From Thermoplasmata archaeon (GTDB lineage: Archaea > Thermoplasmatota > Thermoplasmata > Thermoplasmatales > Thermoplasmataceae), in assembly GCA_021790415.1 (NCBI GenBank), contig JAJYDZ010000081.1:1-7151 (forward strand): DNA of 7,151 nt, read 5' to 3'. Position numbers and translations under genes: made by a program. The notes beneath the pieces were generated by a model. That model did not search any database. It was given only the letters and a program-made list of their open reading frames with translations, and had not been told where the DNA came from. Positions 1-7,100 of this stretch are shown here, piece by piece (position 1 is the first letter of the stretch; each line of letters starts with the position of its first letter).

Positions 1-283
1 TCTCTGAAAGAGTCCTGTACATTTCTGATTTAGATATTACTGAAAAGTAAATATCCCAATCGCTATGAGACTTTAGATAATCAAGCACTCGCTCGCCACT
101 CTTTATATATGTCTCTTCAAAAATGCTATTGTTAGAGCCGGACTTTTTCCGAAGCTTTTCCATTACTTCGCGGGAAGGACTACCCAGATCCAGTTCTGCA
201 CCTTCACAAGCCTCAAGGTACAAGCTCAGGTTGATCATTGAACAAGTATCAATGACGCTCGCAAATTCACTATTCGATTCCAT
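1..283 (-). CDS. PIN-domain-like nuclease, partial (C-terminus beyond window edge)
   Basis: Only the first 94 codons are present; the gene runs off the left edge. Its ATG (281-283) overlaps the TAA of the ATPase gene by one base (TAATG), and a GAGG ribosome site lies about 7 bases upstream, so translation is probably coupled. The N-terminus reads SVIDTCSMINLSLYLEAC, the first strand and helix of a PIN fold, with Asp12 in the position of the first metal-binding acid. At residues 80-89 FSVISKSEMY matches the second conserved PIN strand and helix, with Glu87 as candidate second acid. About 75 residues separate the two, more than in small VapC toxins, so this would be a PIN protein with an insertion. 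PIN proteins cut RNA or, less often, single-stranded DNA. As the last visible gene of the methyltransferase-ATPase operon it is the best candidate effector. The remaining acidic residues cannot be checked, so activity is inferred. Confidence 0.7.
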   Translation of the reverse strand, partial: MESNSEFASVIDTCSMINLSLYLEACEGAELDLGSPSREVMEKLRKKSGSNNSIFEETYIKSGERVLDYLKSHSDWDIYFSVISKSEMYRTLSE

Positions 284-1473
284 TAAGATTCCTCTGAAAT
301 CTTCTTTTCACTCCTTTTAGGATAAAACTCCTCAGCTATCTTGCTTACGTATTCCTTTGATATAGGAGGATCTATATTTTCAGAACTTGCTCTTGCCAAG
401 GTCTGAAAACACACCTTTACAACAACACGGGGAAATCTCAATTGACTTCTTGAAAGGAACACATCTTCTATACCTCGCTCGAAGGGAAAAATCGACTTTG
501 ATTCACTTCCTGTGCGCATTGAATTAAGCCATTTTTCAATTATTCCAGTTATTTCATCACGATCCAACTCTTCAAGAGAAAGAGTTGTTTCCCCGTGATG
601 ACTAAATCTTTCCCAAAGAGGCGGATTTATCTTTTCAATTATCTTTTCTACACCGGGTACCATAGCTAGAACTATCCATAAGTTTTGATGCTCTGATTCG
701 TCTATTAATTTCCTAAATGTAGATAGGTACTCGTACCGGACTCGGGAAGATATTCTGGCTCCAAGTGTTAGTTCTTCAAACTCATCCAGGAGAAGCGCAA
801 CACCTTCTGCCCCGTAGATCCCTTTTATTGCAGTGATAAGGGCATTGAAATATTCCGCTTCTAAATCTTTTGGAACCGAAGGGGATGTCCCCTCCGATAC
901 GAAATCCTTATAATCGAAAAATGGTCGAATTTTAGTCTCAATAACCAACTTTGCAAAACTATATGCCACATTTTCGTTATTGGTGAGCTGCACCTTATCC
1001 TTAAGTATCTTCTGGAGTTTAATTATCATCACATCACGATCACTCTTAGTCTTTAAGCTAATCAAGAATGCATCGTAGTTAGAGCCGAATAAAACCTGTT
1101 GAGTAGAAAGATAATGCTCACTAATTTCATAAAGTGCTTTAGAGAACTCATATCTTCCAAGCGACTGCAACACGTGATTGGCAATACTGTAAAAATTGAC
1201 ACCCGGGTTCTCAATATAAAATGCTTTTATTTTCTTTTTCCAGAAAAAATCCGTCATAAAGCCTTTCATAAAAGCGCTCTTTCCGGCCCCATAGTTACCA
1301 ATCAGTGGGAATGTCTTCGCCCCTCTCCCTGTAGACAGTTCATCATAGAACTTTGTGACTTTTCCCTCCATTCGAGCACTCAAATATACATAATTTCCGT
1401 TTGGTAGTCCAGTACCAGAGGGAGTGAAGGGATTTCCCTGCAATTTCGCTTTATTTTTAAACCAGTTTTCCAT
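283..1473 (-). CDS. P-loop ATPase (AAA+/STAND-like) of the methyltransferase cluster
   Basis: A 396-residue soluble ATPase. Walker A is GNYGAGKS at residues 59-66 and Walker B is VALLLDEFEEL at 225-235, with Asp230-Glu231 as Mg-binding and catalytic acids. A hydrophobic strand ending in LAMVPG (269-274) sits where sensor 1 is expected, and Arg289 in LWERFSHHG is a possible arginine finger. About 160 residues separate Walker A from Walker B, more than in a minimal AAA+ core, so a helical insertion lies between them. The C-terminal 100 residues are helical and basic and could be a winged-helix lid as in Orc1/Cdc6-like ATPases. Similar 'gsGKS ... LLLDEfEeL' ATPases occur in defence loci such as BREX (BrxC/BrxD). 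I see only motif-level likeness and do not assign it to that system. The ATG overlaps the upstream gene by 17 bases and has GGAG nine bases before it. NTP hydrolysis is well supported; the partner or target is inferred from context. Confidence 0.85.
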   Translation of the reverse strand: MENWFKNKAKLQGNPFTPSGTGLPNGNYVYLSARMEGKVTKFYDELSTGRGAKTFPLIGNYGAGKSAFMKGFMTDFFWKKKIKAFYIENPGVNFYSIANHVLQSLGRYEFSKALYEISEHYLSTQQVLFGSNYDAFLISLKTKSDRDVMIIKLQKILKDKVQLTNNENVAYSFAKLVIETKIRPFFDYKDFVSEGTSPSVPKDLEAEYFNALITAIKGIYGAEGVALLLDEFEELTLGARISSRVRYEYLSTFRKLIDESEHQNLWIVLAMVPGVEKIIEKINPPLWERFSHHGETTLSLEELDRDEITGIIEKWLNSMRTGSESKSIFPFERGIEDVFLSRSQLRFPRVVVKVCFQTLARASSENIDPPISKEYVSKIAEEFYPKRSEKKISEES

Positions 1474-2476
1474 TTATGATTTCTCCAATTTTATTTTTTA
1501 ATAGCCTTAAGTGTGAAACATGCCCTACTCCATTAATATAGGGAAAGTACTGTAAAAATGTTTCGTCCATCCCAGCATAAGGTGATGTGGACATAATGGC
1601 ATTCATTGTTATTGGAGTGAAAGAAACAATGGACTCGTTGTGTTGCACCAAAGAAATCATAAATGCGTGCAAGTCTGAAATAGCGATCCTTTTGGCCAAA
1701 CAGATGCCTTCTATGAATGGTGGCAAGTATATTTCGATCCATTCAGAGTCTCGCTTATTATTTCCGAAGTTTACGAAGTCCGTTAGCAGTTGCGTATGAT
1801 TGACTTTGTCAGAGACAGGGTAAATTACACGCTTATTGTCTTCAAGAGTATAAATTTCGTTCGTGATGTTTAGATTTAGGGACCACAGCCTGAGTCCCCA
1901 AAAAATTCCTTGAATTTTATCATAAGTCTCTAACTCAATGTCCCGGCCAACCCCAGAAGTAATTCTGAGGGGTCTTGATTTGCTCTTGCAGGATCTTTTT
2001 GCTTGAATTTTCTGATTCTTGAGGAATTCTACCTTTGCCGGATTTCCTAGACTTCTTAGATCTTGCAAGTCATAATTTGGCTTACTCATGAAAACGTCGA
2101 AGAAATTCTCCCTGCAATCATCATTCTCGACCAATTTAATTCTTAGGCATTCTTTTGCGGCTTCACTAAGTGGTCCACTTGAACTCCTTGTGATTGACAG
2201 GAAAGTTTTTGTAATCGCATCCGAAGAAACGTAATATTTTGCATCGTTTTTCAAAATGATCAAATGGAAATTCTCAAGAACTTTTCTGTAATGATATAGT
2301 GTTGAATGACCAACTTGTGGTTGTCCGTCTCTATTCAAGAAAATCCTGGAATCCCTTATCTTTCTTTCAAGTGCTCCAACCGTTAATTTCCCATCGTTTT
2401 GGTCAACTATGTGAATTATTCTCTTTAGTTTCTCAAAGTTTACATATCTCATCCAAAGGGTGTTCCTTTTTTGCAT
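1457..2476 (-). CDS. Unrecognised 339-aa protein with N-terminal winged helix
   Basis: I do not recognise this family. Residues about 12-85 look like a winged helix: a helix at VGALERKIRD, then a putative recognition helix at STLYHYRKVLENF (59-70), followed by a wing-like LKNDAKYYVSS. Residues 153-171 are a strongly basic patch rich in Lys and Arg that could contact nucleic acid. The rest, including IFWGLRLWSLNL (191-202) and IEIYLPPFIEG (247-257), is mixed alpha/beta and matches no motif I know. No nuclease, ATPase or methyltransferase motif is visible. The ATG has GGAG eight bases upstream, supporting this start over the Met at residue 9. It starts 15 bases after the methyltransferase stop and overlaps the ATPase start by 17 bases, so it is very probably made with both. 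A plausible role is DNA recognition or bridging between the two enzymes; that is inference from position and the winged helix. Confidence 0.75.
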   Translation of the reverse strand: MQKRNTLWMRYVNFEKLKRIIHIVDQNDGKLTVGALERKIRDSRIFLNRDGQPQVGHSTLYHYRKVLENFHLIILKNDAKYYVSSDAITKTFLSITRSSSGPLSEAAKECLRIKLVENDDCRENFFDVFMSKPNYDLQDLRSLGNPAKVEFLKNQKIQAKRSCKSKSRPLRITSGVGRDIELETYDKIQGIFWGLRLWSLNLNITNEIYTLEDNKRVIYPVSDKVNHTQLLTDFVNFGNNKRDSEWIEIYLPPFIEGICLAKRIAISDLHAFMISLVQHNESIVSFTPITMNAIMSTSPYAGMDETFLQYFPYINGVGHVSHLRLLKNKIGEIINGKLV

Positions 2477-2491
2477 ATCACAGGCTCCATA

Positions 2492-3772
2492 TCACCCTTT
2501 TCGAAGGCTTATAATGCTTTCTAGTGAAAACGTTTTTCCGTATCTGCCCATCTGCTGGGGGCTGTTCCCCTTGTCTCGTGCCCTAATTGTCTCTAAGTGT
2601 TCAAAACCAATATTCTTAGCGATTTCGGTTACGTATTCACCAGCAAATATGTTTACTCCACCATATCTTGAGTCACCCAGAACTATATGCATAGTTCCAC
2701 CGTTTTCTAACACCCTATACATTTCCTTAATTGTCAAATACATATCTTTGAAATATCCATCTACAAGCCTGATAACATTCTGGTTGGGTAGGTCCTTCTT
2801 TCTCAGTTCTTCAATATCTTTTTCAATACTTTTGGGGGGAACGTAATCTTCAACGCTGTACTGTTCTCTGGCCTCCACGTGTGACCGAATCAGCCTGTAT
2901 CTAAGCTCCTTGATTTGTTCATAATCTTCCAGAAAACCAATCATTAGTTCGAGGAGGTAGATTCTAGTGTAATCGTGACGGTTTGGATACGGTGGAGAAG
3001 TTATTACAGAACTTATAGTACTAGATTTTAAGGTCGTTTTTCTTGCATCACCTATCATTGCTTTCGATCTGGTTCTAGGTAGCCCATTAGAAAAGCTGAG
3101 GTCGTCAATAATCTGCTTTGTTTTAGCTTCAAACAGCTCTTCAACAGAACTTATGTGCTTTTTTTCAACAGTCCTTATAAATGCACCATCTTTCCTAGTG
3201 AATGACAATTCTTCCAAAATGCTCAACAAACTCAACAAAAAAAGTTCACGATATTTTTTCTCTTCAATTTGCAAAATAGTTGATTTAAGAGACAATATTC
3301 TTTCAAGATAACCTTTAGGGAAATATTTCTTCAACATCTCTATTGGTTGCAAATCCTGTGGATCTAGCACTGGACGCAAGGGTCTTATTAAATTATGGTA
3401 AATCTCCAATACTCTCTTTTTTGAATATCTACGTAGTTTTACGTTAGTGGCTAGTATCGATAAAGGCATAAGGTCTAGGCCTAGAGCTCTAATCCCACTT
3501 TCTTTGGAGGCGAGAAGTGTGGTACCTGCTCCGCAAAATGGATCAAGTGTGACATCGCCAGGTCCTAAGTTATATTTATTAATTATAGTAGATACTAGAT
3601 TACGAGAAAAACTGTGTTTATAAGTATACCATCTGTAAACCGGCAAATGGTTAACTTGATATGGTGTGACAAGCTTAGAATATTCGGTTAGGTGCCAATA
3701 GTCTTTTTCCAATTTAGATGATCTGGCACCTGTGATTGTGGGATGAAGATTCACATAGAACAATAGTTTCAC
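2492..3772 (-). CDS. SAM-dependent amino DNA methyltransferase (N4-cytosine or N6-adenine)
   Basis: A 426-residue exocyclic-amino DNA methyltransferase. The SAM-binding motif I is DPFCGAGTT (77-85), followed by GLDLMPLS (98-105), the acidic end of motif II. The catalytic motif IV is TSPPY (258-262) within ITSPPYPNRHDYTRIY; the T/S-P-P-Y form is commonest in N4-cytosine enzymes but also occurs in N6-adenine ones. HLPVYRWYTYKHSFSRNLV before motif I resembles motif X. LENGGTMHIVLGDSRYGG (355-372) fits the later core strands. The approximately 150 residues between motifs I and IV are long and could be the specificity region. The start is GTG at 3772; no ATG precedes residue 102 and an in-frame TGA lies 12 codons upstream. 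There is no clear ribosome site, so leaderless initiation is possible. No adjacent recognisable restriction endonuclease is seen. Instead the next genes are a winged-helix protein, an ATPase and a PIN-like protein, so it may mark self DNA for a multi-gene defence module. Confidence 0.9.
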   Translation of the reverse strand: MKLLFYVNLHPTITGARSSKLEKDYWHLTEYSKLVTPYQVNHLPVYRWYTYKHSFSRNLVSTIINKYNLGPGDVTLDPFCGAGTTLLASKESGIRALGLDLMPLSILATNVKLRRYSKKRVLEIYHNLIRPLRPVLDPQDLQPIEMLKKYFPKGYLERILSLKSTILQIEEKKYRELFLLSLLSILEELSFTRKDGAFIRTVEKKHISSVEELFEAKTKQIIDDLSFSNGLPRTRSKAMIGDARKTTLKSSTISSVITSPPYPNRHDYTRIYLLELMIGFLEDYEQIKELRYRLIRSHVEAREQYSVEDYVPPKSIEKDIEELRKKDLPNQNVIRLVDGYFKDMYLTIKEMYRVLENGGTMHIVLGDSRYGGVNIFAGEYVTEIAKNIGFEHLETIRARDKGNSPQQMGRYGKTFSLESIISLRKG

Positions 3773-3827: not shown

Positions 3828-4397
3828 TTAAATTTCATGCCCTTTTGTCTTCCCTTCTTTGATGTATTCCTCAATCAAGGCCCTCATGTGTGGAAGTGAC
3901 CATGCAAAGTCTACATGCTTGCATTCCTTGCTGTCATCCTTCTCGCACCATAATTCAAAGTGGCTGTTAATTCTCTTAATGTAGACCATAATGACGCTTG
4001 TTGTTTTCCCGGAATGATCAATCTCCTGTATTGCGACGTGATCATCAAGCACGTTAAGATGGGTCATCGCTGACAGCCCCCTGAACCTGTCTCTCCAGTC
4101 CGGGGGCATTTTGAATTGCACTCCTTCTTCAGTAATCTCACCTTTGGCAACTTCTTGTGTTCTTTTCAGTTGTTCTGCAACAAGTGTACCCTTTGCGGTC
4201 AACGAAATAGAGTAAGTCCTACGGCCATATGTCGATAAATCTTTTCTTAAGTAGCCGTCTCGCTGCAAAGAATCCAGCAGCTTATCCAAGACCTGATTGC
4301 TTGTGACTATATCAAACAACTCTGACTTCATGAAACTCTCCTTTTCAGTAAGTCGTTGAATGACTGATTTTGCGTATTTCAGGTCTAAAGAATCCAT
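3828..4397 (-). CDS. Winged-helix transcriptional regulator with C-terminal Cys/His segment
   Basis: A 189-residue protein. Residues about 5-80 form a MarR/HxlR-like winged helix: a helix-turn-helix around ELFDIVTSNQVLDKLLDSL and a wing at YGRRTYSISLTAKG (57-70), a typical 'r.Y.LT.kG' ending. Residues 100-145 are a separate alpha/beta segment. The C-terminus has Cys151, Cys159 and His161 in the stretch HFELWCEKDDSKECKHVDFAW; this could bind a metal or sense redox state, though only three candidate ligands are evident. It is the first minus-strand gene from the divergent promoter at 4398-4516, whose 16-bp half-sites suit a dimeric winged-helix repressor, so it probably regulates itself and the rightward small-gene cassette. 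It lies 55 bp ahead of the methyltransferase and may also be cotranscribed with it. The ATG has no ribosome site but follows TATA-like sequences by about 27-42 bp, fitting a leaderless or short-leader mRNA. Confidence 0.8.
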   Translation of the reverse strand: MDSLDLKYAKSVIQRLTEKESFMKSELFDIVTSNQVLDKLLDSLQRDGYLRKDLSTYGRRTYSISLTAKGTLVAEQLKRTQEVAKGEITEEGVQFKMPPDWRDRFRGLSAMTHLNVLDDHVAIQEIDHSGKTTSVIMVYIKRINSHFELWCEKDDSKECKHVDFAWSLPHMRALIEEYIKEGKTKGHEI

Positions 4398-4516: not shown

Positions 4517-4669
4517 ATGGCTGAATACAGTGGAAAAGTAATCAAAATTACTGAAAGGAATTATGATAAGCTCCACGATCTTAAATTTGAGCTGAGGGTT
4601 GATACGTTCGACCAGGTCGTTAACTCGCCCCTAGAGGAGCATTCACAGAAGCAGGAGCTTGTGGCTTGA
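4517..4669 (+). CDS. Small VapB/RHH-antitoxin-like protein, 50 aa
   Basis: A 50-codon gene opens the rightward cassette. The stretch KVIKITERNYDKLHDLKFEL resembles the start of archaeal VapB-like and ribbon-helix-helix antitoxins: a short beta strand with alternating hydrophobic and charged residues, then a helix. The following VDTFDQVV recalls the usual 'eSFddVi' motif. These proteins act as dimers that bind operator DNA and neutralise a toxin. No toxin gene follows directly; the next three genes encode membrane proteins, and the only PIN-like gene in the window is far away on the other strand. It may therefore be a stand-alone regulator or a repurposed antitoxin. The ATG has GGTGA six bases upstream. 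Its TGA overlaps the TTG start of the next gene (TTGA), indicating translational coupling. Family assignment rests on a short motif. Confidence 0.65.
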   Translation: MAEYSGKVIKITERNYDKLHDLKFELRVDTFDQVVNSPLEEHSQKQELVA

Positions 4670-4983
4670 ACGATCTTGGTTCCGAATCAAAGAACGTTCC
4701 ATTCATTTTCAGTAAACTATGTACGCTGAAGCCAGGGCCCGATGGTGTACTTCAAGTTTATGCGCTGTGGCTTAAGTTCCCTGAATCGAAAGTAGAGATC
4801 AACAGGAACTCGCTGAAGAAGCTCTCTTCGATTATGATTGTTCTGAGTGTGGTGCTCCTGGCCATTGGAGTGATTGGCGGGCTCTCAGTCATAGCTTTGA
4901 TCTATGATGTAACCGTAGTCTCACTTCTATGGGTTTGGACTGCAGTGTTCCTCGCAGTGATATTTGCAGGGAGGATGAAGTAA
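4666..4983 (+). CDS. Small membrane protein, two predicted transmembrane helices, 105 aa
   Basis: I do not recognise the family. The first 50 residues are polar. They are followed by two hydrophobic stretches, about 54-79 (IMIVLSVVLLAIGVIGGLSV and on) and 83-101, separated by a very short turn, giving a membrane hairpin with a long soluble N-terminus and a GRMK tail. There is no cleavable signal peptide. The start is TTG at 4666, chosen because AGGAG at 4653-4657 sits eight bases upstream and because the TTGA overlap with the preceding stop is typical of coupled genes. The next gene begins one base after the TAA. Function unknown; it is probably made together with the neighbouring two-helix proteins and may assemble with them. 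Confidence 0.7.
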   Translation: MNDLGSESKNVPFIFSKLCTLKPGPDGVLQVYALWLKFPESKVEINRNSLKKLSSIMIVLSVVLLAIGVIGGLSVIALIYDVTVVSLLWVWTAVFLAVIFAGRMK

Positions 4984-4984
4984 G

Positions 4985-5203
4985 ATGACAGATCTGCTAA
5001 CTCGGTCCAAAAGTTTTGCTGTAAAGTACCTGCCGCTGAGTGGTTCCGTAGGAGGGTTCTTTGTGGGAACAGCCTTTCTAGACATTTCAGTTAAGACGGG
5101 AAATGGTTGGTTCTTTCTTGCAGGCTTATTCTCGTTTTTCTATGCTGTATTCTACTATCGTTGGGTGACTGAAACCTCCAGAACGGTAAAGGAGCGTGAA
5201 TAA
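4985..5203 (+). CDS. Small membrane protein, two predicted transmembrane helices, 72 aa
   Basis: Not recognised. It has a short basic N-terminus (RSKSFAVKY), a first hydrophobic segment at about 17-35 rich in Gly (GSVGGFFVGTAFL), and a second at 41-59 rich in aromatic residues (WFFLAGLFSFFYAVFYY). A charged tail follows, ending in KERE. GGAGG at 4970-4974 lies ten bases before the ATG, inside the previous gene, and the ATG follows that gene's stop by one base. Its own TAA overlaps the next ATG by one base. The spacing shows it is part of the same cassette; the function is unknown. Confidence 0.7.
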   Translation: MTDLLTRSKSFAVKYLPLSGSVGGFFVGTAFLDISVKTGNGWFFLAGLFSFFYAVFYYRWVTETSRTVKERE

Positions 5204-5442
5204 TGATCGGTTCATTAGTTCCCGTTATTCTTGCTACCATCCTCAGTCTGGTCATGTGGTCCCTTTACTCTTTCCTGGACTGGATGTACTCTGGTCCGCT
5301 CTGGCATTTTATTCTTGCCGAATCAGCCATGGGGGCCGCTCTTTTTACAATTGTTCTACTTCTTTATCGAGAACAGATCTTGCGAATTTGGAACCGAGTT
5401 TCCACCACAGGATTCCGGGGACTAAGGTGGCGACAAAGATGA
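5203..5442 (+). CDS. Small membrane protein, two predicted transmembrane helices, 79 aa
   Basis: Not recognised. Hydrophobic segments lie at about 4-24 (SLVPVILATILSLVMWSLYS) and 35-55 (HFILAESAMGAALFTIVLLL), followed by a basic tail (REQILRIWNRVS, then an Arg-rich end). The ATG shares a base with the previous stop (TAATG), and GGAG at 5191-5194 is a good ribosome site. It closes the rightward cassette. The last 98 bases overlap, tail to tail, a probable minus-strand gene at 5345-5641. The low-complexity Arg-rich ending (FRGLRWRQR) lies in that overlap and may have been extended by loss of an earlier stop. Coding is well supported by the start context; function is unknown. Confidence 0.6.
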   Translation: MIGSLVPVILATILSLVMWSLYSFLDWMYSGPLWHFILAESAMGAALFTIVLLLYREQILRIWNRVSTTGFRGLRWRQR

Positions 5443-6061: not shown

Positions 6062-7046
6062 ATGGCTCCTCGCTTGAGAGAAAGGAAAAACCAGGATCTG
6101 GAAAGAAAGCTTCTAGACTTCAGGCTTTGGGCAAGAACTTACGGCGGATACCATTCAACGTCCACGGTTCCGAAGCAGGTAAGGACCATCAGGAGATTCG
6201 GGGAAATCTGCAACATGCTCTCGCCCAAGGAGAACATGGAGTGCATCCTTGATGAGTTGGTCAACGAATCTGAAAGAGGAGTAAAACCGCAAACCCTGAA
6301 CCATGTCATCTACGACATTGAGGCATGGGCAAGGTTCCTCGGCCAGCCCATGACCATTCCGAGGTTCAAGCAATCTGCCAGGGCTGAACCGTGGATACCC
6401 ACGGATGATGAGGTTCACCGGATAAGGGAAAACCGCAAGCCGGTCAGGGGATCGTGCGATCTCGGCCAGGAATAGGTGCATAATCGACGTTCTCTTTGCA
6501 GGCGGGTTGAGGATAGGCGAGCTCATTAAGCTCAATCTTTCGGATCTGGACGGCAATCTCCTCTCGGTCATAAGCGAAAAGGGTGAGGCTCCCAGAGTCA
6601 TAGGACTCCCCCAGTCTGTGACCGAAAGATTGCAAGAATACATTGAAAAATACAGGTCCCAGACTGACAGAGATGCCCTCTTCACTACCAACATTGGAAG
6701 ACTGAATTACAATTATGCTAGAAACATGGTCAAATCCATTGCAAGGGAGTCGGGAGTGCCAAAATTCCATGCACATGCTGCAAGGCACTGGTGTGCCACG
6801 GCCCTGTTAAAAAGGGACTCCAGGGGACAAAGGCTCGACATAAGGGAGGTTCAAATCCATTTGGGTCACCGGTCCCTTTCCTCTACCCAAGTCTATACCC
6901 ACCTAAGAGAAAGGGAGGTGGCGGAGCACACGTCAGAGCACCTGGACACCTTTTTTCGACTAGAGGAAAAAAGAGTGGATTCGAACATGAATGTTCAAAT
7001 AATTTTCGGGACTGAACATGAATATGATGGGACCGTTGAGATTTGA
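6062..7046 (+). pseudogene. Tyrosine recombinase/integrase (XerC/D-like), frame broken by one base
   Basis: Two frames together make one integrase. The upstream frame (6062-6475) gives an N-terminal DNA-binding domain of helices, and the downstream frame holds the catalytic domain. Removing one G from the run GGGG at 6447-6450 joins them into 327 residues reading VRDRAISARNRCIIDVLFAG across the junction, as expected for the family. In that numbering the catalytic set is complete: Arg150 (GLRIGEL), Lys173 (SEKGEA), His238 and Arg241 (HAAR), His269 (LGHRS) and the nucleophile Tyr278 (QVYTHL; codon 6894-6896). The enzyme would catalyse site-specific strand exchange between an element and the chromosome. 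Its stop codon and last six codons lie within the 3' end of the opposing tRNA-Pro gene. The break may be a real inactivation, a sequencing error in a G run, or programmed +1 frameshifting. Base composition is visibly more GC-rich than in the leftward operon. Confidence 0.88.
7029..7046. other. Probable attachment site core, shared by tRNA-Pro 3' end and integrase 3' end
   Basis: These 18 bases are both the last part of the tRNA (acceptor 3' strand and T stem) and the last six codons including the stop of the integrase. Integrases of this class commonly recombine within a tRNA 3' end beside their own gene. The true core may be longer. No second copy of this sequence is visible elsewhere in the window, so the opposite end of the element, if still present, lies outside to the left. 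Confidence 0.55.
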
Positions 7047-7100
7047 ACTCAAGTTACCAACACCCCAAGCTGGTAGGATACCAAACTACCCCACGGTCCC
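7029..7100 (-). tRNA. tRNA-Pro(GGG)
   Basis: Read on the minus strand, the 72 bases fold as a complete cloverleaf. The acceptor arm GGGACCG pairs perfectly with CGGTCCC. The anticodon stem CCAGC pairs with GTTGG (one G-U) around the loop TTGGGGT, giving anticodon GGG at 7064-7066. The T arm TTGAG/CTCAA encloses TTCAAAT. CCA is not encoded and there is no intron. The gene is intact despite the integrase next to its 3' end, as expected when an integrating element restores the tRNA end. The flank at 7101-7108 is AT-rich (TATTTAAG on the plus strand), but a promoter direction cannot be assigned. Confidence 0.96.

What the first reader, a model, noticed from the sequence alone, without database searches (positions are those of the whole stretch)
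1..3772. Methyltransferase - winged-helix protein - ATPase - PIN-like nuclease operon: candidate undescribed defence module
Four genes on one strand with 15-bp, -17-bp and -1-bp junctions combine a TSPPY DNA methyltransferase, an unknown DNA-binding protein, a P-loop ATPase (GNYGAGKS, LLLDEFEEL) and a PIN-like protein. Known methylase-ATPase defence systems (BREX, DISARM, Hma) also carry a helicase, a PglZ-type or a DUF1998 partner. None is visible here, and a PIN effector would be unusual. If real, the methyltransferase would mark self, the winged-helix protein would recognise DNA, the ATPase would act as switch or motor, and the PIN protein would be the effector.
Basis: partly seen in the sequence, partly recalled or inferred. 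Interest (0 to 1): 0.8.

Follow-up and report, generated by a model that had tools for sequence, protein, structure and literature searches.

The report
Methylase-linked DNA-reader, ATPase, PIN-nuclease operon
A scarce four-gene set, seen in archaeal and bacterial genome bins and probably part of a virus-defence system, pairs a DNA-marking enzyme with a DNA-reading protein, an ATP-driven switch and a nuclease of a type not usually used for this job.

Summary
On the minus strand lie an N4/N6 DNA methyltransferase (3772-2492), a winged-helix protein (2476-1457), an AAA ATPase (1473-283) and a truncated PIN protein (283-<2), with junctions of +15, -17 and -1 bases.

The four-gene order recurs in both related genome loci found: an archaeal MAG (L001) and a WOR-3 bacterial MAG (L002). 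The winged-helix and PIN lists share 18 contig lengths (0.41 expected), and the paired proteins co-vary (r = 0.93).

The PIN family models as a PIN fold. Its D-E-D-D tetrad is complete in 64 of 65 proteins; the exception is truncated. The winged-helix model matches FokI's DNA-recognition part, which BREX BrxA also resembles. The ATPase is a distant BrxD relative.

In L002 the block sits between type III Mod and Res genes. In L001 it sits directly before a DUF1156 (HmaB-like) methylase. On the features tested it is not itself BREX, Hma or Dpd.

Best reading: a modification-gated, BREX-related module. Methylation marks self, the FokI-like protein reads DNA, the ATPase licenses, and PIN acts. Whether PIN cuts DNA or RNA is unresolved, and defence is untested. 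New variant of a known kind. What lies left of base 1 could not be seen.

The parts
2492..3772 (-). N4/N6 DNA methyltransferase, 426 aa (GTG start; the true start may lie further in), motif I DPFCGAGT, motif IV TSPPY
   Evidence: ORF; Pfam PF01555 5e-17; PADLOC MTase_II 4.9e-75; 43% identical to the L002 and 48% to the partial L001 orthologue
1457..2476 (-). Winged-helix DNA-binding protein, 339 aa; first 224 residues model like the DNA-recognition part of FokI; C-terminal alpha/beta part unassigned and not tested alone
283..1473 (-). AAA ATPase (ORC/Cdc6-like, distant BrxD relative), 396 aa, Walker A and B, conserved Arg289 and Arg349
   Evidence: AAA_22 21.8 bits, cut-off 27; BrxD 17.3 bits, cut-off 350; 42 and 41% identical to L001 and L002
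2..283 (-). PIN nuclease, N-terminal 94 aa only (open at the window edge), first two catalytic-type acidic residues present
   Evidence: alignment to full-length L001 and L002 proteins; model of the L002 orthologue is a PIN fold
3828..4397 (-). MarR-like winged-helix protein, 189 aa, 55 bp before the methyltransferase; possibly the operon's regulator; not similar to the HTH-bearing fragment before the L002 operon
   Evidence: HTH_27 E 0.0012 (19.5 bits, below the cut-off of 22.2); weak MarR-type matches; no alignment to L002:3-335

Best explanation
A four-component, modification-gated defence module related in logic to BREX and restriction-modification. The methyltransferase marks the host's copies of a site (inferred from family). 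The FokI/BrxA-like winged-helix protein reads that site or the DNA around it (fold by model; reading inferred). It then recruits or frees the PIN nuclease, the effector (fold by model and conserved active-site residues in the family; activity inferred). The module is carried as a cassette beside or inside other restriction loci (shown in two loci). I cannot tell whether PIN cuts invading DNA or, as in VapC, RNA to stop the infected cell.
Against: No functional data. Only two loci could be read, one of them cut inside the methyltransferase, and both carry a second methylase, so the block may be an accessory and not self-sufficient. MAG contigs may be mis-binned. Foldseek E-values are weak: reader best 2.5e-3 to DtxR with FokI second at 2.6e-3, PIN best 0.031; none under 0.001. 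I found no precedent for PIN as a DNA-restricting effector; PMC12839542 treats PIN domains as RNases in a backup role (passages). The PIN and ATPase lists share no contig length (0). The window's PIN is cut and 30% identical to the L002 protein modelled.
Confidence: 0.58

Rival explanations
1. A guard module of a neighbouring restriction system: the reader-ATPase pair senses failure or inhibition of the host's R-M complex and releases PIN as an RNase that stops translation, as PrrC does beside a type I R-M enzyme.
For: L002 places the block between type III Mod and Res genes in one tight six-gene run (4-bp overlaps at Mod-MTase, MTase-reader and reader-ATPase). L001 places it before a DUF1156 methylase. 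The PIN fold is closest to VapC RNases. PrrC is silenced by a linked type I R-M enzyme (PMC2610378 abstract). PMC12839542 lists PIN among backup suicidal effectors (passages).
Against: The block carries its own methyltransferase in 3 of 3 loci read (window, L001, L002), which a pure guard would not need, and its DNA reader has a FokI-like form suited to site reading. The companions differ between L001 and L002, so no one R-M system is guarded.
Confidence: 0.27
2. Part of one larger known system whose remaining genes lie left of base 1 (Hma/DUF499-type or type III R-M), the four genes being lineage variants or additions of its core.
For: L001 has an HmaB-like gene right after PIN (PADLOC HmaB E 8.2e-135). 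Its MAG holds a DUF499 gene on another contig, two genes after a radical-SAM gene 96% identical to the one in L001. L002 has Mod and Res.
Against: The companions belong to two different systems, while the four genes stay together; no DUF499 and no DUF1156 in G002 as held.
Confidence: 0.1
3. Not defence: replication, partition or addiction genes of an integrated element (ORC-like ATPase, winged helix, VapC-like PIN) with a methylase for its own protection.
For: A tyrosine recombinase and a tRNA-Pro stand at the right end of the window; the ATPase class is ORC/Cdc6-like.
Against: L001 and L002 show restriction genes, not replication genes, next to the block. No match to the ATPase in 50,697 phage records, and 1 distant match in 72,556 plasmid records, near DpdA-family genes. 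The L002 PIN is 257 aa, about twice VapC, and follows a 404-aa ATPase, not a small antitoxin.
Confidence: 0.05

Closest known systems
BREX (type 2 BrxD ATPase; BrxA DNA-binding protein)
   Same: DNA methylase plus an ORC/Cdc6-type ATPase distantly like BrxD, plus a winged-helix protein that, like BrxA, resembles FokI's DNA-recognition part (PMC9240713 passages)
   Different: No PglZ or BrxC-size ATPase in the block or its read neighbours; a PIN nuclease stands where BREX has PglZ
Hma / DUF499-centred BREX-Related (BR) systems
   Same: Methylase and ORC/Cdc6-class ATPase; in L001 the block adjoins a DUF1156 HmaB-like methylase
   Different: Block has no DUF499 and no helicase, and its methylase is a 426-aa MTase_II type without DUF1156
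Type III restriction-modification
   Same: In L002 Mod- and Res-like genes flank the block in one run of genes
   Different: Not on the L001 contig nor on the visible side of the window
PIN-GNAT-EVE operons near R-M loci
   Same: A PIN protein kept beside R-M and DUF499 loci (PMC7641849 passages)
   Different: There PIN is fused to GNAT-EVE; here it is a separate protein with a reader and an ATPase
PrrC anticodon nuclease
   Same: ATPase-coupled nuclease linked to a type I R-M enzyme (PMC2610378 abstract; its relative RloC is rarely so linked)
   Different: ABC ATPase and nuclease in one chain (HEPN class recalled), not PIN with a separate AAA ATPase and reader
Dpd 7-deazaguanine system
   Same: A homologous ATPase (hhalign probability 98.6%, E 7.9e-16) lies near DpdA-family genes in a Haloferax plasmid
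   Different: No Dpd model matches any of five window proteins; modification chemistry differs; the gene before the Haloferax ATPase is not the winged-helix family

Membership tests
BREX | PglZ protein in the locus (relatives' loci; left of the window unseen) | tested here: not met
   None among the L001 and L002 proteins scanned. By PF08665: no match in G001, one in G002 on another contig, C24
BREX | BrxC-type large ATPase | tested here: not met
   ATPase is 396 aa; PF10923 BrxC_BrxD 15.3 bits against a cut-off of 22.2
BREX | BrxD equivalog | tested here: not met
   NF033438 17.3 bits against a cut-off of 350
BREX | BrxA-like DNA-binding protein | tested here: inconclusive
   None of the 19 Pfam families listed for the 38 members of A6 is BrxA or DUF4007; FokI-like fold in common with BrxA
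Hma / DUF499 BR system | DUF499 ATPase (HmaC) | tested here: not met
   Window ATPase does not match DUF499; DUF499 in G001 only on a different contig, none in G002
Hma / DUF499 BR system | DUF1156 methylase (HmaB) | tested here: not met
   Window methylase has no DUF1156 match; an HmaB-like gene is the next gene in L001 only
Hma / DUF499 BR system | Swi2/Snf2 helicase (HmaA) | tested here: inconclusive
   None among the window or L001 proteins scanned; sequence left of base 1 and beyond the L001 contig is not held; G001 was not searched for it
DISARM | DrmB (DUF1998) and DrmA helicase | tested here: inconclusive
   No such match listed for the window proteins or the L001 and L002 proteins scanned (methylase lists cut at 25 rows); left side unseen
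Dpd | Any Dpd protein | tested here: not met
   No Dpd model at E up to 1 for five window proteins; that the library holds models beyond DpdA (seen) is recalled
PIN domain nuclease | PIN fold | tested here: met
PIN domain nuclease | Conserved acidic active-site residues | tested here: met
   D13, E93, D182, D201 all present in 64 of 65; P0152 (141-aa fragment) has the first two; the window shows only the first two
VapBC toxin-antitoxin | Small VapC with a small cognate antitoxin gene | tested here: not met
   248- and 257-aa PIN proteins preceded by 401- and 404-aa ATPases in L001 and L002
Type III R-M | Mod and Res genes | tested here: inconclusive
   Both flank the block in L002; not on the L001 contig; left of the window unseen
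DNA methyltransferase, N4/N6 type | SAM and catalytic motifs | tested here: met
   DPFCGAGT and TSPPY, PF01555 5e-17
Any antiviral system | Protection against virus or plasmid | not testable with these tools
   needs experiment

The most novel reading that the evidence does not exclude
A self-contained restriction-like system in which a PIN nuclease, gated by a FokI-like DNA reader and an ORC/Cdc6-type ATPase, takes the place that PglZ or PD-(D/E)XK enzymes hold elsewhere and destroys DNA lacking the partner methyltransferase's mark.
Probability: 0.28. Interest if true: 0.8.

Novelty: new variant of a known kind. Interest (0 to 1): 0.6.

Why it matters
If right, it adds a small module to the BREX-related systems with a nuclease class that the BREX survey I read in part lists among backup RNases (PMC12839542 passages). 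It also offers a four-protein set in which the question of how an ORC/Cdc6-type ATPase couples methylation reading to an effector could be tested directly. The families look scarce (81 winged-helix and 63 PIN clusters found among 5.8 billion, by a word-based search of limited reach), yet names and MAGs point to both archaea and bacteria (WOR-3, Deltaproteobacteria, CPR3, Thermococci), so transfer as a cassette is likely.

Tried and rejected
Searched and empty: viral contigs with the ATPase alone and with the ATPase, winged-helix and PIN alignments (4 scans, 0 relatives confirmed); phage records with the ATPase and the methylase; plasmids with the L002 winged-helix and PIN proteins. PDB by sequence gave no useful relative of the ATPase (only weak P-loop matches to Ran/GSP1-type GTPases and the like), the winged-helix protein (none) or the PIN family (none); the methylase matched other methyltransferases. 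BrxA structures (7ZGE, 3BHW) are not among the 50 rows; that is no evidence against.

The protein upstream of the Haloferax ATPase is not the winged-helix family (BLAST; hhalign 1.1%), so only the ATPase is shared there.

The methylase has relatives in 17 plasmid records. I looked at 2: one beside a type II endonuclease, one with no endonuclease annotated nearby, before cas1f and cas3f. The methylase family as such is ordinary.

The contig-length test uses the longest contig per cluster, so it counts coincidences of length, not read adjacency; I did not read those contigs. PIN and ATPase lists share none (0 pairs); the ATPase list has only 10 entries from one single-sequence search, and no PIN hit closer to the window's own was recovered. 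A7 and A6 held 33 of 63 and 35 of 81 hits besides the loci; the tetrad was later checked on all 63.

Literature: no description of this block in what I saw (2 of 2 papers listed; none found; 4 of 4; 15 of 90; 15 of 315; 4 of 4; 6 of 22; 12 of 20), nor in the passages and sections opened. PMC12839542 was read in part (abstract, passages, sections 29, 33, 36; not its supplements). Subscription papers and preprints are not covered.

Full report
OBSERVATION. A fifth gene of the same strand, a MarR-like winged-helix protein (4397-3828), precedes the methyltransferase by 55 bp. The G+C of bases 1-3772 is 38.3%, against 49.8% for the recombinase gene near the right end. No whole genome is held for the window, so nothing left of base 1 could be read.

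METHYLTRANSFERASE. It matches N6_N4_Mtase (5e-17) and a PADLOC type II methylase model over residues 20-425 (4.9e-75). The TSPPY motif suggests N4-cytosine from recalled motif lore; this was not tested. It is 43% identical to the L002 orthologue and 48% to the partial L001 one.

ATPASE. Walker A and B and arginines at 289 and 349 are kept in 9 of 9 aligned proteins, the window's included, which fits an AAA ATPase. Pfam and NCBIfam see AAA_22 and BrxD only below their cut-offs (AAA_22 21.8 bits against 27, BrxC_BrxD 15.3 against 22.2; BrxD 17.3 against 350). A single-sequence search of 5.8 billion proteins gave 10 relatives. A Haloferax plasmid ATPase is homologous by profile comparison (98.6%, E 7.9e-16). 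In that plasmid one unknown gene separates the ATPase from a transglycosylase-like gene, and two genes separate it from a gene over the DpdA cut-off (279.7 bits against 200).

CO-CONSERVATION. Among the genomes held of these two phyla each of ATPase, winged-helix and PIN families matches in 1 of 147 and 1 of 23, each time the source genome itself; what this adds is that no genome has one family without the others. The lists of winged-helix and PIN clusters share 18 longest-contig lengths; lists shifted by 1 to 200 bases share 0.41 on average, 4 at most. The pairwise distances of these 18 pairs correlate at 0.93 (0 of 5000 permutations reach it). Winged-helix and ATPase lists share 3; PIN and ATPase lists share 0. 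Where both proteins bear locus tags of one source (4 pairs: KAX02, ES703, AMJ42, DRN50), the tags leave room for one gene between them, if they step by 5 (by 1 in ES703), which fits the ATPase. One further tagged PIN (KAX97_15095) has no tagged partner; its contig is 1,662 bases.

COMPANY. In L002 the run is type III-like Mod (PADLOC MTase_III 1.8e-119), MTase, winged helix, ATPase, PIN, ResIII helicase with an endonuclease domain (Pfam ResIII 8.6e-14, RE_endonuc 24.5 bits against 23.4), with overlaps of 4 bp at the first three junctions. In L001 PIN is followed by a DUF1156 methylase (PADLOC HmaB 8.2e-135; NCBIfam antiphage DUF1156 210.5 bits, below its cut-off of 1000) and a radical-SAM gene. 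Another contig of the same MAG holds a radical-SAM gene 96% identical to that one, followed by TcmP and a DUF499 gene (Pfam over cut-off; NCBIfam antiphage DUF499 195 bits, below its cut-off of 1200). So the archaeon has DUF499-type parts, but their link to L001 is not shown. The companions of the block thus differ between the two loci while the block stays whole. Hma is defined as helicase, methyltransferase and ATPase (PMC8565338 passages), and PMC12839542 renames it a DUF499-centred BREX-Related system (passages; section 29; section 33).

MECHANISM. Shown: gene order and co-conservation in the loci read, folds by model, ATP motifs, family-wide PIN acidic residues, restriction company. Inferred: methylation marks self; the FokI-like protein reads the site; the ATPase licenses; PIN acts. 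DNA against RNA as PIN's target is open: the fold is nearest VapC, and PMC12839542 counts PIN among endoRNases, but the block's own methylase and DNA reader speak for a DNA-centred response. I put the modification-gated module, with DNA or RNA as PIN's target left open, at 0.58, and a PrrC-like guard of a neighbouring system at 0.27.

SETTING. A tRNA-Pro (7100-7028, no CCA encoded) and a tyrosine recombinase reading towards it (6062-7046, in two reading frames) suggest an integration site. The operon may be cargo of an integrated element that runs left from the tRNA (inference); the other end is not in the window, and the repeat search found no second copy of the tRNA end in it (exact seeds of 11).

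NOVELTY. What I saw, in an open-access library, gave no account of this four-gene set; several of these lists were longer than the rows shown. The nearest frame is the BREX-Related family. It is a new variant of modification-based defence and, on the features tested, not a member of BREX, Hma or Dpd; DISARM could not be settled because the left side is unseen.

Noticed in passing
window 6062-7100: Tyrosine recombinase whose N- and C-terminal parts lie in different reading frames (6062-6475 and 6507-7046), reading into a tRNA-Pro on the other strand: an apparent integration site, with the gene broken or the assembly faulty.
   Followed up: partly
window 4666-5442: Three small ORFs (105, 72 and 79 aa), hydrophobic by eye, in a row on the plus strand; no PHROGs match, other libraries not tried.
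   Followed up: partly
L003 7046-13104: Haloferax plasmid locus with a DpdA-family transglycosylase, a second transglycosylase-like gene, an unknown protein and a BrxD-like ATPase related to the window's: an ATPase of this class near a 7-deazaguanine modification enzyme.
   Followed up: partly
L001 6504-7466 and L016 325-1374: Radical-SAM (SPL-like) genes 96% identical on two contigs of the same MAG, one after a DUF1156 methylase, the other before TcmP and DUF499 genes; either two copies or strain mixture.
   Followed up: partly
L002 6073-6846: PIN family has an inserted segment with a strongly conserved basic motif (PYRIRRKKPF) and a fifth invariant acidic residue, E156 (64 of 65, the exception a fragment).
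   Followed up: partly
window 1457-1804: C-terminal 115 residues of the winged-helix protein hold invariant W246 and H322 (A6) and have no assigned fold.
   Followed up: no
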